In this document: piece by piece, positions 5,999 through 51,257 of the stretch
How positions within the stretch are numbered: the stretch's first letter is position 1
Layout of the letters: each line of letters begins with the position of its first letter
NCBI RefSeq assembly: GCF_900066015.1
Contig: NZ_LN890656.1
Coordinates: 310,001-374,000 of the forward strand
DNA: 64,000 nt
Direction: 5' to 3'
Origin: Candidatus Promineifilum breve
GTDB taxonomy: Bacteria > Chloroflexota > Anaerolineae > Promineifilales > Promineifilaceae
Made by a program: the position numbers and the translations under genes
The notes under the pieces: generated by a model
The model's database searches: none
What the model was told of the DNA's origin: nothing
The model's input: the letters and a program-made list of their open reading frames with translations, nothing else

Positions 5999-6688
5999 AT
6001 GAACAATGCCAGTCAAAAATTTATGGCGGAGATGCAGGCCAAGCTGACGACCTACTTCAACGGCGAAGAGGTCGAGACGATAGCCTTTGTGCTGGGCATT
6101 GACTACGATTCGCTGCGCGGCGCGACCAAGCCGACCAAGGTCAACTCATTGTTGTATGACGTGGCCCGCAACGGCCGCCTGCCGGAACTGCTGGCCCACG
6201 TGGGCGACAGCCGGCGCAATGTGGAATGGCCGGCGTTGCCGCCCAATTTTGAGCTGCCCCAGGGCGCGGCCGGCAGCGAGACGGGCGGCACCACCATCCA
6301 CAACATCAACACCGGCGGCGGGGCCTACATCAGCGGCGGCAACTTCAGCGCCGGGGGCAATCTGTCCACCGGGCGGGCGGACTTGGGCAGCGGGGCGCTG
6401 GGCAAGGGACCGGCGGGCGATCCGCGGGCGCGTTTTCTGCATGAGGTGGCCGCGTTGAAATCGGCGCTGGCCGGGCTACCGTCGCAGCACGCCCGCGAGG
6501 CCGGCACATTGGCCCGCCGCGTCGATCTGCTGGCCGAAGAGCTGGCCGCCGACGACTTCGACGGCGAGACGGTGCTGGATTTGGCCCAGGCGGTGCGCCG
6601 GGCGGCCGAGGCCCTGGCGCAGGTCTCTCCGGCGGCGGTGGGGCGGGCGGGGGCAGTGGTGGAACTGGCGACGCAATTGGCCCGCTAG
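5999..6688 (+). CDS. Effector-associated domain (EAD) protein paired with the metacaspase
   Basis: This is a 229-residue protein. Residues ~10-80 form a death-like effector-associated domain (YFNGEEVETIAFVLGIDY ... GRLPELLAHV ... NVEWP). The same domain opens the protein at 37383. Residues ~98-122 repeat the metacaspase Gly-rich motif (INTGGGAYISGGNFSAGG). Residues ~137-229 form a helical segment that aligns by eye with the metacaspase C-terminus (ALAGLPSQHAREAGTLARRV here, against ALQIELEAAAHDHAAAARTA there). The gene follows the metacaspase after 34 bp with GGAG before the ATG, so the two are probably co-transcribed. An adaptor or sensor role through homotypic EAD contacts is inferred from the family. 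Confidence 0.75.
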   Translation: MNNASQKFMAEMQAKLTTYFNGEEVETIAFVLGIDYDSLRGATKPTKVNSLLYDVARNGRLPELLAHVGDSRRNVEWPALPPNFELPQGAAGSETGGTTIHNINTGGGAYISGGNFSAGGNLSTGRADLGSGALGKGPAGDPRARFLHEVAALKSALAGLPSQHAREAGTLARRVDLLAEELAADDFDGETVLDLAQAVRRAAEALAQVSPAAVGRAGAVVELATQLAR

Positions 6689-6709
6689 GTTGGTTGACCG
6701 GCAACTCGC

Positions 6710-6857
6710 GCCGGAATCGCTGAACAGCAACAACCTACTTCGCATAGTGAACTTTACATAAACAAAATTCATCCTGTCAATCTTGTAAATCCTGTCAAAT
6801 CCTCCCAGGCTAATCGCGACAACTGCAAAGCCCTGCCAGCTAGCCCCCTTCGTACCC
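6710..6857. repeat. Intergenic stretch with ATCCTGTCAA words
   Basis: About 150 non-coding bases after the EAD gene. They contain the degenerate word series ATCCTGTCAATCTTGTAA / ATCCTGTCAAATCC near 6769-6805. Nothing else is recognised. Confidence 0.4.
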
Positions 6858-7069
6858 TGTTACACAAGGATTTTACTGTTCGTTGTAAGCAACTTTAGTT
6901 GCGTTCTTCAGCGCCGTCACTGGGAACGCAGCTAAAGTTGCTTACTACAAACCTCAGAAACATTGTTACACAAGGATTTTACTGTTCGTAGTAAGCAACT
7001 TTAGTTGCGTTCTTCAGCGCCGTCACTGGGAACGCAACTAAAGTTGCTTACTACAAACCTCAGAAACAT
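6858..7069. repeat. Two 106-bp tandem units, each a 22-bp palindrome
   Basis: Units 6858-6963 and 6964-7069 differ at only two positions. Each contains GTAAGCAACTTTAGTTGCGTTC, a 17-base loop, and its inverted copy (one mismatch in the first unit). The element looks like a short palindromic mobile or REP-like unit that duplicated recently. Confidence 0.85.
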
Positions 7070-7125
7070 TGCGTATCAATGTACTAAGTGGTTCTAATCC
7101 ATAACTCTTACTACCATTGACACCG

Positions 7126-7887
7126 ATGTCTCTAACCATCCTCTCGGCCAATCTGCTCAACCCGTTGTTCAACACCATACGGGTCGATCACCGGGCCTGG
7201 CTGACGCGGCTGGAGGCGTTGGCCGGGCTGGTCGAGTCTCAGGCGGCCGACGTGGTGCTCTGCCAGGAAGTGGGCCGCAGTCGCGAGCTTCGTGTAGATG
7301 AATGGCTGGCCGGGCGGTTGGGCCTGACCGCCGTCTATGAGCGGGCCAACGGTCGGGCCCAGGGGCGGTGGGGGCGCGAGGAAGGCGTGGCGATTCTCAG
7401 CCGCTACCCCCTGTCGTCGCCGGTGAGCACCCTGTTGGGCGGCGGGCTGTGGCGGCGGCCGGCGCTGGGAGCGGTGGTCGCCGCGCCGTGGGGCGAGTTG
7501 GCCGTCTATACCGCCCACCTGAGCCTGCGGCCGTGGCGCAACCGGCGGCAACCGGGGCGGCTGCGCGACTGGGTGGCGGCCACGGCCGGCGGGCGGCCGG
7601 CCATCATCGGCGGCGATTTCAACGCCGCGGCGCACGCGCCGGGGATGGCGGCGTTGGCCGGGCCGTGGCGCGACGTATGGCGGGCGACGCATCCCACCGT
7701 AGAGGGATTCTCCCACGAACTCACGCTATTCGGCCGGGTGGCGCGGCGGCGGCGGATCGACTACCTGTTTCTGCGGGCGGGCGATCCAGAACTTCGCATC
7801 GCTTATTGTGACTATCATACGACTGCACCGCCGTTCGCCGATCATCGCGCCGTCGTGGGCCGCTTTGAAGCGGGCGCTGGTGAATGA
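7126..7887 (+). CDS. Endonuclease/exonuclease/phosphatase (EEP) family hydrolase
   Basis: The 253-residue protein has the EEP fold motifs in order: ILSANLLN near the N-terminus, the metal-binding Glu in VVLCQEVGRS, IIGGDFNAAAH, RIDYLFLRAG and the terminal ADHRAVVG. The family cleaves phosphodiester or phosphomonoester bonds in DNA, lipids or sugar phosphates. No DNA-repair-specific insert or signal peptide is obvious, so the substrate is unknown. ATG 7126 is preferred to the upstream TTG at 7117 because MSLTILSANL is the usual family start. Confidence 0.85.
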   Translation: MSLTILSANLLNPLFNTIRVDHRAWLTRLEALAGLVESQAADVVLCQEVGRSRELRVDEWLAGRLGLTAVYERANGRAQGRWGREEGVAILSRYPLSSPVSTLLGGGLWRRPALGAVVAAPWGELAVYTAHLSLRPWRNRRQPGRLRDWVAATAGGRPAIIGGDFNAAAHAPGMAALAGPWRDVWRATHPTVEGFSHELTLFGRVARRRRIDYLFLRAGDPELRIAYCDYHTTAPPFADHRAVVGRFEAGAGE

Positions 7888-17585: not shown

Positions 17586-19829
17586 ATGAAGAAGAATGCC
17601 TTGAGAATGCTCCTGGCCCTCATCGCCATTTTGGCCCTGACGGTCCTGGTAGCATGCGGTGGCACAACCACCACCGAAACGCCCGAAGAAACCGTGGCGA
17701 CCGAAGTACCGGCCGCCGAAGAACCGGCGGCCGAAGAAGAGCCGGCGGCCGAACTGTCGGGCAAGGTCGGCATCGTATTGCCGACGCAGGATGAGCCGCG
17801 CTGGGAGCAGGACGAGACCCGCTTCCGCGAGGCGCTGGAAGCCGCGGGCTATGAGGTCGAAATCCTCTTCAGCCAGGGCGACTCGGCGCGCGAGCGCCAG
17901 AACGTGGAAGACCTGATCACCCAGGGTATCCAGGTGTTGATCATCACCCCCCACGACGGCACCGCCGCCGCCGCCGCCGCCGAACTGGCGCGCGCCGCGG
18001 ACGTGAGCGTGATCTCCTACGACCGCCTGATCCGCGACACCGAGGCCGTGGACTACTACGTGACCTTCGACAGCATCGCCGTGGGCGCGCAGCAGGCGCA
18101 GTTCCTGGTCGATAACGCCGAAGGCACCGACAACCCGCTGTACCTGTACGCCGGCGCGGCCACCGACAACAACGCCTTCATCTTCTTCGAAGGTGCGTGG
18201 CAGGTGTTGCAGCCGAAGATCGCCGATGGCACGTTCCGCATCGTCAACTCGAGCGAAGCGGTGGCCCTGCAAGACACGGCCGAACTGAGCCGCGAGCAGA
18301 TGGCGACGATCATCGATCAGATCACGACCAACTGGGACTTCAACACGGCCCGTAACCTGGCCGAAGCCAACCTGACCGCCGCCACCGCCGAGGATAAGGG
18401 CGACGTGTTCATCCTGGCCCCCAATGACGGCACGGCCCGCTCCATCGCCGACGTGTTCGCCGCCGACCCCGACGTGACCAGCTTCCTGGTGACCGGGCAG
18501 GACGCCGAGCAGGCTTCGGTGCAGTACATCATCGACGGCCGCCAGTCGATGACCGTCTTCAAGGACGTGCGCACGCTGGTGGATGACGCCATCGCTGCCG
18601 CCGTGGCCCTGCTCGAGGGCGGCGCGCCGGAAGCGTCGGGCGCCTACAACAACGGTGTCATCGACGTGCCCGCCGTGCAGTCGCCGGTGGTCTCGGTTAC
18701 CCAGGCCAACCTGGTCGCAGCCCTGATCGACTCCGGCTACTACAGCGCCGACCTGTTCACCGGCCTCGACGCGCTGGGCGCGGGCGCGGCCGAAGAACCG
18801 GCGGCCGAGCTGACCGGCAAGGTCGGCATCGTGCTGCCGACGCAGGACGAGCCGCGCTGGGAGCAGGACGAAACCCGCTTCCGCGAGGCGCTGGAAGCCG
18901 CCGGCTATGAGGTCGAAATCCTCTTCAGCCAGGGCGACTCGGCGCGCGAGCGCCAGAACGTGGAAGACCTGATCACCCAGGGTATCCAGGTGTTGATCAT
19001 CACCCCCCACGACGGCACCGCCGCCGCCGCCGCCGCTGAACTGGCCCACGAGGCCGGCGTGAGCGTCATCTCCTACGACCGCCTGATCCGCGACACCGAG
19101 GCCGTGGACTACTACGTGACCTTCGACAGCATCGCCGTGGGCGCGCAGCAGGCGCAGTTCCTGGTCGATAACGCCGAAGGGACCGACAACCCGCTGTACC
19201 TGTACGCGGGCGCGGCCACCGACAACAATGCCTTCATCTTCTTCGAAGGTGCGTGGCAGGTGTTGCAGCCGAAGATCGCCGACGGCACGTTCCGCATCGT
19301 GAACTCGAGCGAAGCGGTGGCCCTGCAAGACACGGCCGAACTGAGCCGCGAGCAGATGGCGACGATCATCGACCAGATCACGACCAACTGGGACTTCAAC
19401 ACGGCCCGTAACCTGGCCGAAGCCAACCTGACCGCCGCCGCCGCCGAGGACAAGGGCGACGTGTTCATCCTGGCCCCCAATGACGGCACGGCCCGCTCCA
19501 TCGCCGACGTGTTCGCCGCCGACCCCGACGTGACCAGCTTCCTGGTGACCGGGCAGGACGCCGAGCAGGCTTCGGTGCAGTACATCATCGACGGCCGCCA
19601 GTCGATGACCGTGTTCAAGGACGTGCGCACGCTGGTGGACGACGCCATCGCCGCCGCCGTGGCCCTGTTGTCCGGTGGCGCGCCGGAAGCGTCGGGCGCC
19701 TACAACAACGGTGTCATCGACGTGCCCGCCGTGCAGTCGCCGGTGGTGACCGTGACGGCCGAGAACCTGGTCGAGGCCCTGATCGACTCCGGTTACTACG
19801 CCGCCGACCTGTTCACCGGCTTGCCGTAG
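17586..19829 (+). CDS. chvE: ChvE-type multiple-sugar-binding lipoprotein with two tandem binding domains
   Basis: A lipobox (LTVLVACGG) and an Ala/Glu/Pro-rich tether precede two complete periplasmic-binding-protein domains of the ChvE/multiple-monosaccharide class. They span roughly residues 58-400 and 410-747. Both start GKVGIVLPTQDEPRWEQDE and carry ISYDRLIRDTEAVDYYVTFD, TDNNAFIFFEGA and TGQDAEQASVQYIIDG. The copies are nearly identical at DNA level with a period of 1056 bp (17761 matches 18817). Family members have a single domain of about 330-360 residues, so this is an internal duplication. The gene is followed by the cognate ATPase and permease. It should bind aldose monosaccharides outside the membrane; the exact sugars are not readable. 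Confidence 0.9.
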   Translation: MKKNALRMLLALIAILALTVLVACGGTTTTETPEETVATEVPAAEEPAAEEEPAAELSGKVGIVLPTQDEPRWEQDETRFREALEAAGYEVEILFSQGDSARERQNVEDLITQGIQVLIITPHDGTAAAAAAELARAADVSVISYDRLIRDTEAVDYYVTFDSIAVGAQQAQFLVDNAEGTDNPLYLYAGAATDNNAFIFFEGAWQVLQPKIADGTFRIVNSSEAVALQDTAELSREQMATIIDQITTNWDFNTARNLAEANLTAATAEDKGDVFILAPNDGTARSIADVFAADPDVTSFLVTGQDAEQASVQYIIDGRQSMTVFKDVRTLVDDAIAAAVALLEGGAPEASGAYNNGVIDVPAVQSPVVSVTQANLVAALIDSGYYSADLFTGLDALGAGAAEEPAAELTGKVGIVLPTQDEPRWEQDETRFREALEAAGYEVEILFSQGDSARERQNVEDLITQGIQVLIITPHDGTAAAAAAELAHEAGVSVISYDRLIRDTEAVDYYVTFDSIAVGAQQAQFLVDNAEGTDNPLYLYAGAATDNNAFIFFEGAWQVLQPKIADGTFRIVNSSEAVALQDTAELSREQMATIIDQITTNWDFNTARNLAEANLTAAAAEDKGDVFILAPNDGTARSIADVFAADPDVTSFLVTGQDAEQASVQYIIDGRQSMTVFKDVRTLVDDAIAAAVALLSGGAPEASGAYNNGVIDVPAVQSPVVTVTAENLVEALIDSGYYAADLFTGLP

Positions 19830-21524: not shown

Positions 21525-22754
21525 ATGAGCGCTGTTAAAGAACTACCCGCAAAAGGCCCCGCCGGGGCGCCGCCGGCCGGTTTTGCCGGCCAACTATCCC
21601 AGGTTTTGCGCAAGAACATCCGCGATTACGGCATGTTCATCGCCCTGTTTGTCATCTGGATCGCGTTTTATTTTCTGACCGATGATGGCGTTTTCCTTTC
21701 TGCGCGCAATCTGAGTAATTTGCTGAACCAGTTCGGCTACATCGCCGTGCTGGGCATCGGCGTCACGCTGGTCATCGTCATCCGCCACATCGACCTGTCC
21801 ATCGGCTTTCTGGCCGGCTTCATGGGCGCGGTGGCGGCCATCGCCCTGAGCTTCTGGGGGCTGCCGGTGTGGGTGGTCATCCCCGCCGTGCTGCTCATGG
21901 GGGCCATCCTGGGGCTTATTCCGGGCTACATGGTGGCCCAACTGGGCATCCCGGCCTTCGTCGCCACGCTGGCCGGCTTCCTGGTCTATCGCGGGGCCAT
22001 CCTGGTGGTCACCGGCGGCTCGGGCACGATCATCATCGACAACGACGCCTTCAACGCCATCGGCAACGGCTTCATCCCCGACATTCCCGGCGAGCTATGG
22101 CCGGGCAAGCATCTGCTGACGCTGCTGCTGGGCGTGGCGGCGGTCATCCTGTTCATCCGCAACGAGATCAAGAGCCGCCGCACCAAAATGGCCTATGAGT
22201 TCGAGGTGCTGCCGAGCAACATCTTCATCCTGAAGCTGGTCTTCGCCTCGCTCATCATCGCCGCCATCAGTTGGATTCTGGCCAGCTACAACGGCCTGTC
22301 GTGGACGGTGGTCGTGGTGCTCATCGTGCTGGCGATCTACCATTTCGTGACGACGCAGACGGTGCTGGGCCGCCACATCTACGCCGTGGGCGGCAACCCC
22401 GAAGCGGCCGAATTGAGCGGCATCAACGTCAAGCGCATCACCTATCTCATCTTCAGCCAGATGGGCATGTTGGCCGCGCTGTCGGGCATGTTGTTCGCCT
22501 CGCGGCTGCAATCGGCGACGACGACGGCGGGCACGCTGTTCGAGCTGGACGCCATCGCCGCGTCCTACGTGGGTGGTGTGTCGGCCGCGGGCGGCGTGGG
22601 CCGCGTCACGGGCGCGGTCGTCGGCGCGCTGGTCATGGCTTCGCTGACCAGCGGCATGAACCTGATGGGCATCGGCATCAGCTACCAGTACATCGTGCGC
22701 GGTATCGTCCTGGCCCTGGCGGTCATCTTCGACGTCGCGACACGGAACAGATAA
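21525..22754 (+). CDS. mmsB: Multiple-monosaccharide ABC transporter permease
   Basis: This is a 409-residue multispanning membrane protein of the MmsB/GguB (XylH-like) family. Recognisable segments include SARNLSNLLNQFGYIAVLGIGVTLV, cut here to LLNQFGYIAVLGIGVTLVI, then RHIDLSIGFLAGFMGAVAAI, VYRGAILVVTGG, YAVGGNPEAAELSGINVKRI and the C-terminal YVGGVSAAGGVGRVTGAVVG. About ten transmembrane helices are expected, as in the family. GGAGG lies before the ATG. It forms the channel for the sugar bound by the ChvE-like lipoprotein and is driven by the upstream ATPase. Confidence 0.94.
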   Translation: MSAVKELPAKGPAGAPPAGFAGQLSQVLRKNIRDYGMFIALFVIWIAFYFLTDDGVFLSARNLSNLLNQFGYIAVLGIGVTLVIVIRHIDLSIGFLAGFMGAVAAIALSFWGLPVWVVIPAVLLMGAILGLIPGYMVAQLGIPAFVATLAGFLVYRGAILVVTGGSGTIIIDNDAFNAIGNGFIPDIPGELWPGKHLLTLLLGVAAVILFIRNEIKSRRTKMAYEFEVLPSNIFILKLVFASLIIAAISWILASYNGLSWTVVVVLIVLAIYHFVTTQTVLGRHIYAVGGNPEAAELSGINVKRITYLIFSQMGMLAALSGMLFASRLQSATTTAGTLFELDAIAASYVGGVSAAGGVGRVTGAVVGALVMASLTSGMNLMGIGISYQYIVRGIVLALAVIFDVATRNR

Positions 22755-22761
22755 GAAAAGA

Positions 22762-22886
22762 GAATCCACAGATTACACAGATTTCACAGATTTAAAGAGA
22801 GTGAATAGTGGTCAGTGGTCAGTGGGCAGACTGACCACTGACCACTCTACTCTTCAATCTGTGAAATCTGTGTAATCTGTGGATTC
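22762..22886. repeat. Nested double palindrome (CTGTGAAAT outside, GTGGTCA inside)
   Basis: Perfect 31-bp outer arms (22762-22792 and 22856-22886), made of ACACAGATT/TTCACAGATT words, enclose a second perfect 16-bp inverted repeat AGTGGTCAGTGGTCAG (22807-22822) and its complement (22831-22846). The right arm encodes the last residues and stop of the restriction-modification gene. The same two-layer architecture occurs at 62671-62806. Confidence 0.9.
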
Positions 22887-25800
22887 TCCCCTCTTCTCCC
22901 CCGCATCAGGTTTAGATCAAGCAGCCGCTCCAGGATGGCCTCGTCGCTCAACCCATCCGGCCAGCCATAGGCGCGCAACACGGCCGCGTCGAGGGCGCGG
23001 TGGATGTCGTCCAGTTCCCGTATCTCCTCGCGACTGACCCCGCCGCGCGTCTCCTTGTCGAAGGCGGCGCGGTCGAAGGCCGTGCCCTTGTGGTCGCGGT
23101 AGTAGACCAACCCGTTATACAGATTGGTCAAGGTGCGGGCCTTGATCAGCCGGTCGTAGGCCACATCGAGCGTCCCTTTGGCCGGCGGCGGCGGGTTCAG
23201 CCACGCCGCGCGCCACGCCACCAGCTCCCGCGCCCGCCGCGCGATGGCTTCCACAAGCCGCCGCCTGTCTTCCGCCTCTCTGCCCTGCCCACTCTCTTCT
23301 CCCCCCTGCTCCCCCGCTCCCCTGCTCCCCTGCTCTCCTTCCCCCCTGCTCCCCTGCTCCCCCTCAGCCCCCGGCGGCCAGGGGAAGGGGAAAGTCTCGA
23401 AGGTCGTGGTGGGGGTATAGCGCGGGCGGTCTTCGAGCGACGTCCCCATGCGCAGCGCCCACAGTTCGTGCAGCCGGGAGTGGAGGACGCCGAAGAAGTA
23501 GTCGTCGTCGCGGGCGATGGCGATCACGAGATTAGCCGGAAGAATCTCTGGTTCCAGCCAATCAAAAATCCGATGCTTCGCAACCATTGAAGTGCCGATG
23601 TATCTGCTCAGAGGTTTAAGGGCGCTCCTCATTCCCGACCGTGCTTCAGCGTGTAACCACCATTTATCACGGTAGGATGCTCTGCTATTATCCTTACGAA
23701 TTGGATACACATTGTTTTGTACGTAGCTAAATGGGGCTTCGTACTTTCCAGCATCTTCAATGGACATATCAACGCCAAAGTCGACTATCCATACGTCTCG
23801 TGGTCGCCTCGTGATGTCAGTTCCGTTGTAATAGGGTCTAACTACTTTTTGGTTGTTTTCGCTTTCGGCAATCCACTTGCGCGCTAAAGAACCATCAATA
23901 TCAAATGGCCCTGCTGGTGTGACACCCATGAAAGACAAGTGCTGATTTTCCGTTAGTTGCTTTGCTTCACTTACATTGATGGTCGAGGATAGGTCAGAAT
24001 TAATTATAGAAACATTTAACCCATCCAGTGTCTTTGTCGCATTGGTTTCGCTTTTGCCCGCAAATCCAATAATCGACACCCGCACAGCCGCGCCATCCAA
24101 AATCCACGAATTATCACTCCAGGCCATAAAAATATCGCCGGTATCTTTAATGCGATCCAAAACTTTACGGTTCGCGCCGCCACGGATAGAGTTGGTCGCT
24201 AATAAGCCGGCTCGTTTCGCATAGTCTATCTTGATAGCCTCTCGCGCCTTCTCAAACCAGTAGCACACCAAATCCGCCTCGCGCGGTACGCGGCCGTCAT
24301 AGACGCGGAAAACGTCATCCACGTAGGCGTCGCCCAATTCACTACGCAACCGCTTGCCCCCCAAAAACGGCGGATTCCCAATAATCACCTCAGCCGCCGG
24401 CCATTCCGGCTCCACCGGGTGGCCGTCGGCGTCATGGGCCAGGATGGCGTCCATGTGGCGGATGTTGCCCAGCGGCCGCAGCACCGGGTCGTCCATCTCG
24501 GCGAAGCCGTTCTCGTGCCGCCATTGCAGGTAGCCGATCCAGACCGTCACCTGGGCCAGTTCGTGGGCGTATTCGTTGATCTCGATGCCGTACAGTTGGT
24601 GCGGCCCCACCGTCAGCGGAATGTCCGGCAGCCCCCGCCGCGCGGCATGGGTGATGACTTCCTTCTGCAAATCCAGCAGCCGCCGCAGGGCCACGTACAG
24701 AAAGTTGCCGCTGCCGCAGGCGGGATCCAAGACGCGCACCTGGGATAATTCGTGGGCGAATTGTGACAAACGATCGTTTTCTAATGACAAATGACGAATG
24801 ACGAATGACGAATCAAGAGGTTGCTCTTCATTCGTCGTTCGCGGCGGCTCCCCTGCTCCCCTGCCCCCCTGCTCCCCTGCGCCCCCGCCCCCGCCCCCGC
24901 TTCCTCGCCGCACCTCATCCCACCGCCGCTCCAACGGTTCCATCAGCACCGGCTCGACGATCAGTTCGATGTCTTGCCGGCTGGTGTAGTGGGCGCCGAG
25001 TTGGGCGCGCTTGTCCTCGTCGATGACGCGCTCGAAGAGGGTGCCGAAGATGGAGGGATCGACGGCCGACCAATCCTGATCGGCGGCGCGCAAGACCTTG
25101 TGGGCCAGGTCGTGGGGCAGGGCGGGCACGAATTCGTCATCGAACAGCGTGCCGTTGAAATGGCGCACGGCGAACATGCCGAAGTGGCCGCCGTCGCGCA
25201 TGGCGGCGAACAGATTGCGCAGCGGGTGGCGCAGGTCGCTGTAGGCCGTGCCCTGGCCCTTGACGATCTGGGTGAACAGACCGTCGGGCAGCAGCCCCAA
25301 ATCCTCGGCAAACAGGCAGAACAGCAGGCGGATGAGGAAATGGGCGCGCTGTTCGGGGGTGTAGCTCTCGCCGGTCAGCCGTTGGTGCTCCTTCAGCGCC
25401 TCGGCCACGGCCAGGAAGGTATCGGCCGTGGCGCGGGTGATGTTCTCCCGCGTGCGTTCGGGCATGAAGCTGTCGGGGTCAAGGAAGACGCGGCGCAGCA
25501 CATCGACCCCCGGCCCGGCGCCGCCGTTCCCGGCGACGATGTCGTCGAGGGTGACGGTCGTCTTGACCACCGGCCGGTTGGTGAAATTGGAGTAGATGTG
25601 GATGACGCGGGTGTCGCTGGTGATGAGCAGCGGCGGGTTGTTGAGCGCCTCGCGGTAGAGCTGGAGCTGGCGGTAGGCTTTGTCCAGGTCGGCGTGCGGC
25701 CCCTTGTACTCCATGATGAAGTGGTCGCGAAAGTAGACGTCGGCGTAGCCTTTCTGGCCGCCGGCTTTCACGGTCGAAGTCTGGAAGGAGAAGGTCGCGC

Positions 25801-25942
25801 CGGTGGGGTCGTGGCGCGCGCCGTATTCGCTGGGCGTGGCGTGGCCCACCAGCCGGCACAGGTCATCGAAGTGACTGGCATAGAGGGCGGTTTCTTTCTG
25901 CTGTAATTTAGACCATTTGCTGACGAATTCGGCGGGCGACAT
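22847..25942 (-). CDS. MmeI-like fused type II restriction endonuclease/N6-adenine methyltransferase
   Basis: The 1031-residue protein joins an N-terminal nuclease to a gamma-class methyltransferase. The nuclease motif D-X9-EXK (DVYFRDHFIMEYK) matches the spacing known for MmeI-type type IIL enzymes. Methyltransferase motif I is LDPACGSGNFLYVAL (about residue 405) and motif IV is NPPF (about residue 524). A target-recognition region follows (SFMGVTPAGPFDIDG ... RPRYTPTTTFETFPFPW). Such single-chain enzymes cut DNA at a distance and methylate one strand for protection, so no separate subunit is needed. Two low-complexity insertions (residues ~346-389 and ~860-880) are encoded by intergenic-type repeats. 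The C-terminus PQITQISQIEE comes from the flanking palindrome. Confidence 0.88.
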   Translation of the reverse strand: MSPAEFVSKWSKLQQKETALYASHFDDLCRLVGHATPSEYGARHDPTGATFSFQTSTVKAGGQKGYADVYFRDHFIMEYKGPHADLDKAYRQLQLYREALNNPPLLITSDTRVIHIYSNFTNRPVVKTTVTLDDIVAGNGGAGPGVDVLRRVFLDPDSFMPERTRENITRATADTFLAVAEALKEHQRLTGESYTPEQRAHFLIRLLFCLFAEDLGLLPDGLFTQIVKGQGTAYSDLRHPLRNLFAAMRDGGHFGMFAVRHFNGTLFDDEFVPALPHDLAHKVLRAADQDWSAVDPSIFGTLFERVIDEDKRAQLGAHYTSRQDIELIVEPVLMEPLERRWDEVRRGSGGGGGGAGEQGGRGAGEPPRTTNEEQPLDSSFVIRHLSLENDRLSQFAHELSQVRVLDPACGSGNFLYVALRRLLDLQKEVITHAARRGLPDIPLTVGPHQLYGIEINEYAHELAQVTVWIGYLQWRHENGFAEMDDPVLRPLGNIRHMDAILAHDADGHPVEPEWPAAEVIIGNPPFLGGKRLRSELGDAYVDDVFRVYDGRVPREADLVCYWFEKAREAIKIDYAKRAGLLATNSIRGGANRKVLDRIKDTGDIFMAWSDNSWILDGAAVRVSIIGFAGKSETNATKTLDGLNVSIINSDLSSTINVSEAKQLTENQHLSFMGVTPAGPFDIDGSLARKWIAESENNQKVVRPYYNGTDITRRPRDVWIVDFGVDMSIEDAGKYEAPFSYVQNNVYPIRKDNSRASYRDKWWLHAEARSGMRSALKPLSRYIGTSMVAKHRIFDWLEPEILPANLVIAIARDDDYFFGVLHSRLHELWALRMGTSLEDRPRYTPTTTFETFPFPWPPGAEGEQGSRGEGEQGSRGAGEQGGEESGQGREAEDRRRLVEAIARRARELVAWRAAWLNPPPPAKGTLDVAYDRLIKARTLTNLYNGLVYYRDHKGTAFDRAAFDKETRGGVSREEIRELDDIHRALDAAVLRAYGWPDGLSDEAILERLLDLNLMRGRRGENPQITQISQIEE
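23301..23363. repeat. CCCCTGCTC word array inside the restriction-modification gene
   Basis: Tandem CCCCTGCTC/CCCCCTGCTC words lie in frame and encode GEQGSRG/GAGEQGG peptides between the target-recognition region and the C-terminal helices. The same words are intergenic at 17363-17395. Confidence 0.85.
24774..24905. repeat. TGACGAA palindrome plus CCCCTGCTC words inside the restriction-modification gene
   Basis: ATGACGAATGACGAATGACG words (24787-24815) are mirrored by CATTCGTCGTTC (24829-24840) and followed by CCCCTGCTC and CCCCCG words. The array is translated as GSGGGGGGAGEQGG and TTNEEQPLDSSFVIRH just before methyltransferase motif I. Confidence 0.82.
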
Positions 25943-26555: not shown

Positions 26556-27716
26556 TCATTTCACCAGAAACGCTGTCCCATACATAATCAATATCCCCGC
26601 CGCCAGCCCGGCGAAATTGAGCCAGGTCAACGCCGAACCGCCGGCGCGTTGGGCGTCGCGGCTCAGCAGGCGGCCGACTTCCCAGATGACCTGCAAGATG
26701 GCCCCCGCGCCGATGCTGAGGAACAGCGCCGCCAGCAGGGGCGAGAAGGCCAGCCCGCCGATCCACGTGCCCAGGATGGCCGGGCCGCCGGCCAACAGGG
26801 CCAGCAGCACGAAGGCCCGCAGCGGCGGCCGTTGCCGGGTCAAGGGGGCCACCACGCCGATGCCCTCGGTCACGTTGTGGAGCGTGAAGCCGACGACGAG
26901 GAACGAGCCCAAGGCCGCCGCGCCGGTGGCGAAGGCCGCGCCGATGGCCAGCCCCTCGCCGAAGTTGTGCAGCCCGATGCCCAGGGCGATGAGCGCCGCC
27001 ACGCGCAGCGGCGACTGCTCCCCGCCGCGCCGCCCCACGGCCAGCAACACGCCCAGACTGAGCAGCGCCCCGAAGACGACCACCGGCACGCCCTGGAACA
27101 CGCCCGGCGCTTCCCCGGCCAGTTCCAGCGCCTCCAGCAGCGTATCGACGAACAGGAAGATGAGCAGGCCGATGGTCAGGGCCAGCACGGCGTTCAGCCA
27201 TTTGCGGTCAACCCGGCGCAGGAAGGGATACCACAACATGCCCAGGGCCACGGGGATGACGCCGACGTAGATGCCCAGCAGGGCGTAGGCCAGCAGCGTG
27301 CCGCCGTCCAGTGCGGGCGAGACCACGGCCACGTCGACGCCGGCCGGGAAGGTGACGCCGGTGGCGGTGATGAGATTGATGGGCAACGGTTCGCCGTCGA
27401 CCCAGGGGTAGGCCAGGTCGATGGTGGCCGTGTCCAGGCGCCCCAGGGTGCGGCCGGGGCTGATGGTGTGGCGCCAGTAGGCATCATCGACCGTCACCTG
27501 GGCGATGGTCACCGGGTCGGGGCCGCCGTTGATGACCTCCAGGCGGATGGCCCCCGGCGCGGGGAAGAGGACGCGCTGGACGGTCAACTCTTCCAGCGGC
27601 GGGAACGCGCCGCTGAAATAGCGCAATGGGTCGAGGGCCAGAAACCCGGCCACCAGCGCGGCCAGCAGCAATAGCGGCAGCAGGGCCAGCAGCCAGCGCG
27701 GGGCGTTACGTAACAT
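26556..27716 (-). CDS. ZIP family metal transporter with extra N-terminal domain
   Basis: The 386-residue membrane protein has the ZIP metal-binding helices GIGLHNFGEGLAIGAAF and VGFTLHNVTEGIGVV, so both HNxxEG sites are intact. The first ~130 residues are an N-terminal helix and a beta-rich extracytoplasmic segment (VQRVLFPAPGAIRLEVINGG) that is not part of the minimal ZIP fold. ZIP proteins import Zn, Fe or Mn. ATG 27716 overlaps the stop of the upstream multicopper oxidase gene by 11 bp, indicating translational coupling. The joint arrangement suggests periplasmic metal oxidation or binding linked to uptake; this is an inference. Confidence 0.85.
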   Translation of the reverse strand: MLRNAPRWLLALLPLLLLAALVAGFLALDPLRYFSGAFPPLEELTVQRVLFPAPGAIRLEVINGGPDPVTIAQVTVDDAYWRHTISPGRTLGRLDTATIDLAYPWVDGEPLPINLITATGVTFPAGVDVAVVSPALDGGTLLAYALLGIYVGVIPVALGMLWYPFLRRVDRKWLNAVLALTIGLLIFLFVDTLLEALELAGEAPGVFQGVPVVVFGALLSLGVLLAVGRRGGEQSPLRVAALIALGIGLHNFGEGLAIGAAFATGAAALGSFLVVGFTLHNVTEGIGVVAPLTRQRPPLRAFVLLALLAGGPAILGTWIGGLAFSPLLAALFLSIGAGAILQVIWEVGRLLSRDAQRAGGSALTWLNFAGLAAGILIMYGTAFLVK

Positions 27717-28935
27717 CAAAGAACCCCATCCAGCCCAACTCGGCCAGCTCCGTCTGGTGGGCGTGGAACATATAGAGGCCCGGCTCGAAATCCTCGAAGC
27801 TGAACTCCAGGATGCCGCGCTGGGCCTGGCACTGCATGATCGTGTCCACCGTGCGCAGGGTGGGCGTCAGCGTCGTGCCGTGGTCGTAATAGTCGAAGAA
27901 GTTGGCGTGCAGGTGGATGGAGTTGATCGGGTCGAACTCGGTCACGTTGATCAGATAGAGCCGCTGCCGCTGGTCGCGGCGGATGGGGATCGGCCGCGTC
28001 ATGTCATAGGCGAAGGCCACCGTGTTGGCGGCGTAAACCTCGTTCTCGCCGTCGAAATTGGTGTCGAAGCCGTTGAGCACCATGACCATCTCGTTGACGG
28101 CGCGGCTTTCGGCGAACTGGTGATTGCGGGCGCGGGCGGCGGCCGCTTCCGCGCCGCTGAATTGGGCCGGGTCGGGGTCGATGATGAACGCGCCGTATAG
28201 CCCCTTGTGGATGTGGCGCTTGAGGGGCACGGCGTGGCAATGGTACAGATGGCAGCCGAACGGCTTGGCGTCGAACTCGTAGGTGAACGACCCGCCGGGC
28301 TGGATCATGCCCGGCCCCACGCCGGGGATGCCGTCCATCACCGCCGAATGGATGCCGTGGAAGTGGATGGTGTGGGGGTGGCTGCCGGCATTCACGAAGT
28401 GGACGCGCAGCCGCTCGCCGGCCACGCAGCGCAGGCTGGGGCCGGGGCATTGGCCCATCAGCCGGCCGGCGCGGCGCGAGGCGGCGGCCGTCGGGCTGCC
28501 ATAGACCCAGCCGGGAAAATGCACCCCCGGGGCGATCTCGAATTCGCGGTCGATGGCGTAGAGCTGCCAGGTGCGCACGGTGCGGCCGCCTTCCTCGGTC
28601 ACCGTGCCGTAGTCGAAATCGGTCAAAATCTCGTGCGGGTCGAAGCCGTTGGCGGCGTGGTCGACCTGGCCGACGGTGCCCATGCCGCCGTGGTCGGGGG
28701 AAGAGTGCAGGGGGGCAGGGGAGCGGGGGAGCAGGGGGGAGGCGGAATGAAGGGGAGCAGGGGAGCGGGGGAGCAGGGGAGAAGAAGCGTGGGGGTCGTG
28801 AGTGGTGGGGGGCGGTGATTGGTCGGCGCCGGCCGCTTCCAGCCCGCGCAGGCCGAACAGGCCGGCCAGCCCGGCGAGGCTGAAGCCGCCTACGCGCAGG
28901 AAGTCGCGCCGCGAAAAGCCTTGGTTGTCGCTCAT
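27706..28935 (-). CDS. Tat-exported multicopper oxidase domain protein
   Basis: ATG 28935 gives a twin-arginine signal, FSRRDFLRVGGFSLAGLAG; the open frame to 28986 adds no signal-like sequence. Copper motifs include HTIHFHG (HxHG), the core HLYHCHAVPLKRHIHKGLYG, HLHANFF and a last motif HAHQTELAELGWMGFF. The last motif has Ala and Glu where laccases have Cys and His, so the type 1 site probably resides in the HCH core, as in two-domain enzymes. Residues ~41-80 are a Ser/Pro/Leu/His-rich linker encoded by GGGAGCAGG-type repeats. The gene precedes and overlaps the ZIP transporter and is divergent from the TetR gene. Substrate unknown; a metal-oxidase role is plausible. Confidence 0.82.
   Translation of the reverse strand: MSDNQGFSRRDFLRVGGFSLAGLAGLFGLRGLEAAGADQSPPPTTHDPHASSPLLPRSPAPLHSASPLLPRSPAPLHSSPDHGGMGTVGQVDHAANGFDPHEILTDFDYGTVTEEGGRTVRTWQLYAIDREFEIAPGVHFPGWVYGSPTAAASRRAGRLMGQCPGPSLRCVAGERLRVHFVNAGSHPHTIHFHGIHSAVMDGIPGVGPGMIQPGGSFTYEFDAKPFGCHLYHCHAVPLKRHIHKGLYGAFIIDPDPAQFSGAEAAAARARNHQFAESRAVNEMVMVLNGFDTNFDGENEVYAANTVAFAYDMTRPIPIRRDQRQRLYLINVTEFDPINSIHLHANFFDYYDHGTTLTPTLRTVDTIMQCQAQRGILEFSFEDFEPGLYMFHAHQTELAELGWMGFFDVT
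28697..28790. repeat. GGGGAGCAG word array inside the multicopper oxidase gene
   Basis: Repeated GGGGAGCAGGGGAGC words, interrupted by GGCGGAATGAA, are translated on the minus strand as two SPLLPRSPAPLHS units just after the Tat signal. This is the same family as 23301-23363 and 53315-53345. Confidence 0.85.
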
Positions 28936-29063
28936 GGTGGTGTCCAGGGCTAAGGAAAACCTCTGTTTGAAAGTTCGCCTTAGCAAAAGTTAAATTTTGA
29001 TTAGTCTAAATTTTAACGAGAGTGAGGGCTTTGTCAAGGAGAACGCTGGTTACCTCTGGCGGG

Positions 29064-50170: not shown

Positions 50171-51193
50171 ATGAATAAGCGAATTGTGACGATGATGATT
50201 GTGGCGCTGGCCTTGCTGGCGCTGGCGGCGACGGCCGTTCTGGCCCGTGAAGCGCCGGAGCTGGGCGGTGGGGCGGCTAACGAGGCTCGCCTGCGTAAGC
50301 CGATGGTTAGCCGAGGCGGGCTGATCGGGTTGTTGCTTGCCAGGCAGGACGACGACAACGCCAATGACAATGGCGGCGATGACAATGCCAATGATAATGG
50401 CGATGATGATAACGGGAACGATAACGATAGCGACGACAACGCCAATGACAATGGCGACGATGACAACGCCAATGACAATGGCGACGATGACAACGCCAAC
50501 GACAATGGCGATGATGACAACGCCAACGACAATGGCGACGACGACAACGCCAACGACAACGGCGGCGATGACGATGACGACAACGCCAACGACAACGGCG
50601 ATGACGACGACAACGCCAATGATAATGGCGATGATGATAACGGGAACGATAACGATAGCGACAACGATAGCGATAGCGACGACAACGCCAATGACAATGG
50701 CGACGATGACAACGCCAACGATAATGACGATGACGACAACGCCAACGACAACCACGATGACGACGATAACGCCAACGACAATGGCGACGATGACAACGCC
50801 AACGACAATGGCGACGACGATAGCGGGAACGATAACGATAGCGACAACGATAGCGATAGCGACGACAACGCCAACGACAACGGCGATGATGACGACAACG
50901 CCAACGACAATGGCGACGACGACAACGCCAACGACAATGGCGACGACGACAACGCCAACGACAATGGCGATGACGATATGAACGACAACGGCGACGACAA
51001 CGGCGACGACAACGGCAACGATAACGATAGCGACAACGATAGCGACGACAACGATAGCGACGACAACGATAGCGACGATAACGATAACGACGACGACGAC
51101 AACAGCGGCCCCGGCGGCGGCGATGACGACGACGACGATGACGATGACGACGATGACGACAACAGCGGCTCAGGTGGCGGCGACAACGACTGA
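50171..51193 (+). CDS. Secreted Asp/Asn-repeat protein
   Basis: The 340-residue protein starts with a signal peptide (NKRIVTMMIVALALLALAAT) and a short unique segment (REAPELGGGAANEARLRKPM). About 280 residues of DDNANDNGDDDNANDNG-type repeats follow, ending NSGSGGGDND. The repeats are encoded by AACGACAATGGCGACGAT and GATAGC-type words related to the intergenic hexamers. Such acidic D/N tracts could bind calcium or form extracellular matrix. The next genes are an ECF sigma factor and a DUF5667 membrane protein ending in a very similar tail. TAGGAGAAAG precedes the ATG. Confidence 0.72.
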   Translation: MNKRIVTMMIVALALLALAATAVLAREAPELGGGAANEARLRKPMVSRGGLIGLLLARQDDDNANDNGGDDNANDNGDDDNGNDNDSDDNANDNGDDDNANDNGDDDNANDNGDDDNANDNGDDDNANDNGGDDDDDNANDNGDDDDNANDNGDDDNGNDNDSDNDSDSDDNANDNGDDDNANDNDDDDNANDNHDDDDNANDNGDDDNANDNGDDDSGNDNDSDNDSDSDDNANDNGDDDDNANDNGDDDNANDNGDDDNANDNGDDDMNDNGDDNGDDNGNDNDSDNDSDDNDSDDNDSDDNDNDDDDNSGPGGGDDDDDDDDDDDDDNSGSGGGDND

Positions 51194-51257
51194 CGCACTG
51201 CCCACTGACCACTAACTATCCACTGCCCACTATCCACTTTTCAAGTATCATCGCCTC

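What the first reader, a model, noticed from the sequence alone, without database searches (positions are those of the whole stretch)
23301..23363. Second repeat-encoded peptide in the same restriction-modification gene
GGGAGCAGG words encode several GEQGSRG units between the target-recognition region and the C-terminus. Two independent insertions in one enzyme suggest tolerance or domestication, perhaps at domain linkers.
Basis: partly seen in the sequence, partly recalled or inferred. Interest (0 to 1): 0.55.

Follow-up and report, generated by a model that had tools for sequence, protein, structure and literature searches.

The report
Genome repeat words filling enzyme loops
A short DNA repeat that is scattered through this bacterium's genome has landed, in frame, in a floppy loop of a DNA-cutting defence enzyme, and related bacteria carry other repeats in the same loops, so the loops look like tolerated parking places rather than a new function.

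Summary
Bases 23303-23362 are 7.5 imperfect copies of an 8-base word (GGGGAGCA on the gene's strand), read in frame as GEQGSRG(A) in a 1031-residue MmeI-like (Type IIL/IIG) restriction-modification enzyme, between target-recognition domain and C-terminal helical bundle. The word is dispersed through the genome: 616 near-matches to its dimer against 1 for a reversed control. Most homologues have a much shorter stretch there; a same-genus genome has a shorter octamer-derived segment at the same place. In the predicted structure both repeat peptides are low-confidence coil between helices. Across homologues, 20 of 35 inverted repeats fall at five loops, and close relatives carry different repeats in one loop. 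The octamer also sits in frame in other proteins of this genome, e.g. MiaB (0 of 19 relatives have it). Best reading: near-neutral in-frame insertion of multiplying repeats into indel-tolerant loops. Tolerance is supported; domestication is not; a phase-variation switch is unlikely because the array is degenerate. Frame-breaking insertions exist too. New variant of a known kind (Rickettsia palindromic elements, intragenic REPs).

The parts
22847..25942 (-). MmeI-like Type IIL/IIG restriction-modification gene, 1031 aa
   Evidence: ORF; Pfam MmeI spacer, methyltransferase and TRD; PADLOC REase_MTase_IIG 5e-256; best solved match 5hr4 MmeI by sequence and fold
23303..23362 (-). Site 2: octamer array, 7.5 copies of GGGGAGCA, encoding GEQGSRGEGEQGSRGAGEQG (residues 861-880)
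23294..23398 (-). Predicted coil (residues 849-883) between TRD and C-terminal helices that holds the array and its G-rich tail
   Evidence: AlphaFold model; block means 56 and 53 at 861-880; about 28 residues longer than L073/L074 between residues 840 and 915 (76 against 48)
24767..24900 (-). Site 1: octamer array, G/C run and AATGACG heptamers, encoding about residues 348-392
   Evidence: TRF 24783-24813 and 24847-24900; 43 residues where MmeI has 2; helix ends at 349 and resumes at 378
22750..22898 (.). Nested hairpin of ACAGATT-type and AGTGGTC-type words; encodes the enzyme's last 15 or so residues and holds its stop codon, and overlaps the end of the convergent permease ORF
   Evidence: inverted repeats; DNA fold z -15.2; ORFs 21525-22754(+) and 22847-25942(-)

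Best explanation
The tract is a lineage-specific, in-frame insertion of a genome-dispersed octamer repeat into the unstructured linker between the target-recognition domain and the C-terminal helical bundle of an otherwise intact-looking MmeI-like restriction-modification enzyme. The word has no stop codon in any frame on either strand, so any total length that keeps the frame leaves an open gene and adds a hydrophilic, probably disordered loop. Insertions that break the frame or hit folded parts are mostly lost, so repeats accumulate in the few loops of this enzyme that tolerate length change. Shown: dispersal, in-frame state, absence of the word from other homologues seen except the same-genus one, placement in predicted coil, recurrence of other repeats at the same loops. 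Inferred: near-neutrality, the route of insertion, and that the enzyme still works.
For: Dispersal: 616 against 1; 141 exact dimers in G000 and 7-18 in four of the seven other genomes of the genus. Homologues: 68 residues against a median of 40 around site 2 (78 long homologues); same-genus L064 has about two octamer units at the same place, in frame. Structure: both inserts are low-confidence coil between helices in a model of mean pLDDT 88.4. Recurrence: 20 of 35 inverted repeats in 87 genes at five places; 19 of 21 longer ones clustered against 9.6 expected, reached by 3 of 5000 random placements; these places are among the most length-variable of the family. Turnover: L073/L074 and L075/L172 carry different repeats at site 1. 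Same word in other proteins of G000: 13 of 26 arrays in coding ORFs; MiaB insert absent in 19 of 19 relatives.
Against: Enzyme activity is untested. Rows are related, so the clustering test overstates independence. 15 of the 35 inverted repeats lie elsewhere: 4 upstream of the start and 11 scattered in the genes. Frame-breaking cases exist: L104 has a palindrome with a frameshift at the 924 loop, L140 a transposase-like insertion at the TRD/C-terminal junction. Length at site 1 varies widely anyway (33-65), and a few homologues are nearly as long as the window at site 2 (up to 67). Low pLDDT also occurs at 313-317, which is not repeat-made.
Confidence: 0.85

Rival explanations
1. Phase-variation switch: slippage in the octamer array turns the enzyme on and off, as simple repeats do in other restriction-modification genes.
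For: The unit is not a multiple of 3; loss or gain of 8 or 16 bases would end the protein at 909-947 residues, 24 would not. Simple repeats in restriction-modification genes and octanucleotide repeats are reported in Haemophilus (PMC2651432, passages), and a phase-variable Type IIG enzyme in Campylobacter (PMC4889913, start of abstract in a listing).
Against: The array is degenerate (84%): exact dimers occur at only two places in it, so the longest pure run is two and a half units, short for fast slippage (established knowledge). The same word is dispersed in hundreds of places, many not in restriction genes. The same-genus copy differs in length but stays in frame.
Confidence: 0.05
2. Domesticated or functional linker: the GEQGSRG peptide tunes domain spacing or TRD movement and is kept by selection.
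For: It sits exactly at the TRD / C-terminal bundle junction and is present in both genomes of the genus in which the region was seen.
Against: Length and sequence differ between these two; other homologues have a median of 40 against 68 residues; close relatives swap repeats at site 1; the same peptide occurs in unrelated proteins.
Confidence: 0.06
3. Nucleic-acid function: the G-rich tract is kept as a G-quadruplex or hairpin that regulates the gene or its mRNA.
For: The coding strand matches a G-quadruplex pattern. G-rich 7-nt repeats form quadruplexes in Xanthomonas and Nostoc (PMC4692102, abstract and passages).
Against: That paper reports such repeats to be under-represented in coding regions. 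No hairpin at site 2 (z +1.24). Other homologues carry other, non-G-rich repeats in these loops.
Confidence: 0.03
4. Chance low-complexity sequence or assembly artefact.
For: Repeats are error-prone in assemblies (general knowledge).
Against: 20 matches against 0.09 in shuffles; the word occurs in separately assembled genomes of the genus; the ORF stays open through every tract.
Confidence: 0.01

Closest known systems
Rickettsia palindromic elements (RPE) and other protein-coding palindromes
   Same: Dispersed repeats inserted in frame in unrelated protein genes, typically in non-structured segments (passages of PMC10969869, PMC2996958, PMC2229807).
   Different: RPEs are palindromes of about 105-150 bp. 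Site 2 is a one-armed array of an 8-base word with no hairpin; in MiaB the same word does form a hairpin.
Intragenic REP elements and REPtrons (PMC3733652)
   Same: 20-40 bp palindromes, some inside ORFs, some giving stop codons; loops and linkers proposed as neutral sites; tyrosine transposases nearby. The 33-bp palindromes of relatives and the G034 locus resemble this.
   Different: The window's octamer array is not a stem-loop at site 2; GTAG/CGTC tags were not tested; that paper stresses replication and repair genes, not restriction enzymes.
Short tandem repeats of 6-9 nt, e.g. G-rich heptamers of Xanthomonas and Nostoc (PMC4692102)
   Same: G-rich short units, dispersed in many copies.
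   Different: Those are 7-mers and under-represented in coding regions; here 13 of 26 sampled arrays lie in coding ORFs by a crude score.
MmeI (5hr4), Type IIL restriction-modification enzyme
   Same: Domain order and fold; Z 35.4, rmsd 3.9, 690 residues aligned, 25% identity.
   Different: MmeI has 2 residues where the window has 43 at site 1, so it lacks that insert.

Membership tests
MmeI-family Type IIL/IIG enzyme | N-terminal PD-(D/E)XK nuclease motif | tested here: met
   D68, E78 and K80 (E-x-K) invariant among 56 aligned rows
MmeI-family Type IIL/IIG enzyme | Helical spacer, N6-adenine methyltransferase (motif IV NPPF) and TRD in this order | tested here: met
   PF20465, PF20473, PF20466 above cut-off; NPPFLG 523-528 invariant
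MmeI-family Type IIL/IIG enzyme | C-terminal helical bundle and overall fold | tested here: met
   helices from 884; 5hr4 Z 35.4 over model residues 168-1017
MmeI-family Type IIL/IIG enzyme | Methylation and cleavage activity | not testable with these tools
   needs an assay
Protein-coding palindromic element (RPE type) | In-frame insertion absent from most homologues | tested here: met
Protein-coding palindromic element (RPE type) | Dispersed copies in the genome, in unrelated genes | tested here: met
Protein-coding palindromic element (RPE type) | The inserted element is itself a palindrome | tested here: not met
   site 2 has no hairpin, z +1.24; site 1 has one, z -2.4
REP / RAYT system | Stem-loop repeats beside a tyrosine transposase gene | tested here: inconclusive
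   G000 has 3 Y1_Tnp matches but no exact octamer in the 3.5 kb taken around each. In relative G034 a gene like a REP-associated tyrosine transposase (below that model's cut-off; no Pfam Y1_Tnp match) adjoins the enzyme gene
Phase-variable simple-repeat gene | Pure tandem array of a unit that is not a multiple of 3 | tested here: not met
   unit of 8, but 84% match and no pure run over two and a half units
Phase-variable simple-repeat gene | Length variants among strains or cells | not testable with these tools
   one genome per species held; the only same-genus copy seen differs in frame-keeping fashion

The most novel reading that the evidence does not exclude
The loops of this restriction-modification family are preferred landing sites of an active repeat-mobilising system (RAYT-like), so the gene records whichever repeat was multiplying in each genome. 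In addition, the repeat tract at the TRD / C-terminal junction may act as a recombination seam for swapping specificity cassettes: between the window and same-genus L064, regions within residues 521-857 are 40-62% identical while flanking regions are 83-88%, and site 2 lies at the 3' edge of that block.
Probability: 0.1. Interest if true: 0.7.

Novelty: new variant of a known kind. Interest (0 to 1): 0.42.

Why it matters
It gives a natural map of insertion-tolerant loops in MmeI-type enzymes, which are of interest for engineering, and a case in which one enzyme family has been hit at the same loops by different repeats. That makes a question about small dispersed repeats testable: are they passengers filtered by protein structure, or do they have preferred targets?

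Tried and rejected
Chance or artefact: rejected. Phase variation: unlikely, see rivals. Hairpin at site 2: tested and absent. 'The octamer is unique to the genus': rejected; in the class, 29 of 298 genomes hold an exact dimer, with 47, 45 and 33 in G113, G317 and G309 of other families; within the family it is 7 of 52 genomes, five of them of the window's genus. Octamer next to tyrosine transposases of G000: no exact octamer in the three stretches of 3.5 kb. Is the enzyme gene a special hotspot? Weak at best: 18 inverted repeats in 230 kb of these genes (0.078 per kb) against 59 in 523 kb of flanks (0.113 per kb), 17 of the 59 in open frames of 200 aa or more. Seam for cassette swapping: cannot be told, because residues 846-860 are conserved in the rows compared. 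Strand preference of in-gene arrays: 9 against 4, too few to tell. An early guess that site 1 is a domain linker was corrected by the MmeI alignment. Literature searches: (listings; passages of some papers). I noticed no report of octamer or palindrome insertions in restriction-modification loops of Chloroflexota in those listings, but most subscription papers are not held, including the original RPE papers.

Rows dropped: 93 locus sequences were given to (13 regions and 80 loci). The alignment left out 10: four duplicates (L061, L067, L068, L069), five whose match needs more than one frame (L104, L116, L135, L140, L143) and a short fragment (L066), leaving 83. One search added three (86 homologues and the window = 87). 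The five were looked at afterwards: L104 has a palindrome with a frameshift at the 924 loop; L140 has an inserted transposase-like stretch at the TRD/C-terminal junction; L116 has a small frameshift in the FPFPWP motif next to site 2, without a repeat; L135 and L143 break elsewhere. L064 and L053, L172 and L173 are partial genes on separate contigs.

Full report
What is there. The minus-strand ORF 22847-25942 encodes 1031 residues. Pfam finds the MmeI helical spacer (200-267), MmeI methyltransferase (389-632) and MmeI TRD (789-854); PADLOC's Type IIG model matches at 5e-256. The nearest solved structure is MmeI (5hr4), by sequence (E 6e-45) and by predicted fold (Z 35.4, rmsd 3.9, 690 residues). 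Nuclease residues D68, E78, K80 and the methyltransferase motif NPPFLG (523-528) are invariant among 56 aligned rows, so the enzyme looks intact; activity was not tested.

The finding. Bases 23303-23362 are 7.5 copies of CCCCTGCT at 84%, read in frame on the gene's strand as GEQGSRGEGEQGSRGAGEQG, residues 861-880. The unit is 8 bases, so the peptide repeats every 24 bases as GEQGSRGA. Dimers of the word with up to 2 mismatches occur 20 times in the window against 0.09 expected, and with up to 1 mismatch 616 times in the genome against 1 for the reversed control.

Two more repeat-made parts lie in the same gene. Site 1 (about residues 348-392) joins an octamer array, a G/C run and AATGACG heptamers. 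The last 15 or so codons and the stop codon lie in a 149-nt nested hairpin of two other words, z -15.2.

Relatives. Homologues came from two overlapping sets of whole genomes (59 genomes, 22 with a match; 52 genomes, 25 with a match; each count includes the window's own) and from a scan of named genomes (248 candidates confirmed, best 80 kept). In the alignment (83 homologues) the window has 68 residues where 78 long homologues have a median of 40 (31-67) around site 2, and 65 against a median of 47 (33-65) around site 1. The same-genus genome G005 (L064) has GKGRKGEGEQGSG at site 2, about two octamer units, still in frame, and a different word (VTSYELQVTNEE) at site 1. Its flanking regions are 85-88% identical to the window (83% for the N-terminal part on another contig), while regions within residues 521-857 are 40-62%, as after a specificity-cassette swap.

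Recurrence. A search for perfect inverted repeats (arms of 11 or more, loops up to 60) in 87 genes found 35, of which 20 fall at five places: window residues 361-386 (site 1; 5 rows), 506-508 (4 rows), 894 (site 2; 1 row), 922-927 (6 rows) and 955 (4 rows). Of the other 15, four lie before the start codon and 11 are scattered. With arms of 13 or more, 19 of 21 lie within 15 residues of another; random placement gives 9.6 on average and reaches 19 in 3 of 5000, with the caution that rows are related. The commonest repeat length is 33 bases (11 of 21), and 16 of 21 lengths are multiples of 3; these are lengths of the perfect repeat, not of the whole insert. On a quick 40-row tree built without the five sites, parsimony needs 6 presence changes at site 1 (presence in 9 rows judged by eye), 3 at site 2, 3 at 507, 4 at 924 and 3 at 955; L064, L172 and L173 are partial and their placement is weak. 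Close pairs carry different repeats at site 1: L073/L074 (81-93% identical by region) and L075/L172 (88-96% where both are seen).

Match to the host genome was tested for two palindrome families. ACCTGACAGGTCTT-N-AAGACCTGTCAGGT (up to 2 mismatches) is in 14 of 52 family genomes, with 11-20 places in G060-G063 and none in the eight genomes of the window's genus. ACCTGCGAGGTTT-NNN-AAACCTCGCAGGT is also in 14 of 52, with 17 in G034 and none in the window's genus. In G034 six copies lie in 3.95 kb: two upstream of the enzyme gene, two in it (site 1 and the 955 loop), one at its stop codon and one inside the next gene. That gene resembles a REP-associated tyrosine transposase below that model's cut-off (45 against 80 bits) and has no Pfam Y1_Tnp match. 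The palindromes of L062, L073 and L075 at site 1 were not counted in their genomes.

Structure. The AlphaFold model from alignment A1 has mean pLDDT 88.4. Both inserts are coil between helices (322-349 / 378-400 and 844-848 / 884-915), with 10-residue block means of 49, 53, 66 at 351-380 and 56, 53 at 861-880; the C-terminal word tail 1022-1031 is under 50. One other low stretch, 313-317, is not repeat-made. The 507, 924 and 955 places fall in coil between secondary-structure elements. Site 2 is the TRD / C-terminal bundle junction (MmeI about 826); site 1 lies between residues aligned to MmeI 342 and 345, inside the methyltransferase domain (domain limits from passages of PMC4833311).

Same process elsewhere in this genome. 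In 704 kb (32 stretches of 20 kb and the window) 26 octamer arrays of 3 or more units were found; 13 lie in ORFs with coding signal on both sides by a crude hexamer score, 9 with the G-rich and 4 with the C-rich strand as sense. These 13 lie in eight ORFs: this enzyme and seven others. The seven, and one more whose array is at its C-terminus (L185), were scanned with Pfam; seven of the eight have a match. The array lies outside the best-scoring Pfam stretches in six (MiaB-like, FtsX, BTAD regulator, cytochrome, multicopper oxidase, arginase family) and inside it in one (peptidase S58). In the MiaB-like protein the insert adds 17 residues between the UPF0004 and radical SAM domains, and 0 of the 19 relatives aligned have it. 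There the word forms a full hairpin (z -7.6), whereas at site 2 it does not (z +1.24).

Interpretation. The simplest account is multiplication of short repeats, insertion at many places, and survival where the frame holds and the protein tolerates a longer loop. The octamer suits this because neither strand has a stop codon in any frame, as its sequence shows. The frame rule is a filter, not a property of insertion: L104 shows a palindrome with a frameshift and L140 a transposase-like insertion at the TRD/C-terminal junction. A switch by slippage is unlikely because the array is degenerate, although changes of 8 or 16 bases would end the protein at 909-947 residues and 24 would not.

Known or new. 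In-frame dispersed repeats in proteins are known from Rickettsia and others (PMC10969869, PMC2996958, PMC2229807: passages seen). Intragenic REPs, with flexible linkers or loops proposed as neutral sites and GTAG repeats reported in Chloroflexi, are in PMC3733652 (abstract and passages). What seems to be added is the octamer-word form, the restriction-modification host, and recurrence of different repeats at the same loops. The names 'RAYT-like' and 'MiaB-like' rest; other names and motif labels not tied to a call are recalled.

Noticed in passing
window 17586-19829: One 747-residue ORF holds two near-identical copies of a sugar-binding-protein-like sequence in tandem, beside ABC transporter ORFs.
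   Followed up: no
window 27709-28989: Multicopper-oxidase-like protein with octamer-encoded SPAPL/SPLLPR peptides before its first Pfam domain.
   Followed up: partly
L180:17582-19024: MiaB-like gene of the same genome with an octamer hairpin in frame between two domains; 0 of 19 relatives aligned have it.
   Followed up: yes
L233 (G034:C45), contig bases 30326-34276: Six copies of one 33-37-base palindrome in 3.95 kb in and around the homologous enzyme gene, one of them inside the next, transposase-like gene.
   Followed up: partly
L140, about 6493-7287: Homologue interrupted by a transposase-like stretch at the TRD/C-terminal junction, the same junction as site 2.
   Followed up: partly
genomes G113, G317, G309: The same octamer dimer is abundant (47, 45, 33 exact matches) in three genomes of other families of the class; why the same word recurs is unexplained.
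   Followed up: no
L064 against window residues 521-857: Between two same-genus genomes the methyltransferase/TRD block is only 40-62% identical while flanking regions are 83-88%, as after a specificity swap.
   Followed up: partly
window 50348-51195: Large GAC/AAC-rich tandem array (periods 6, 27, 81 and others), perhaps an Asp/Asn-rich protein segment.
   Followed up: no
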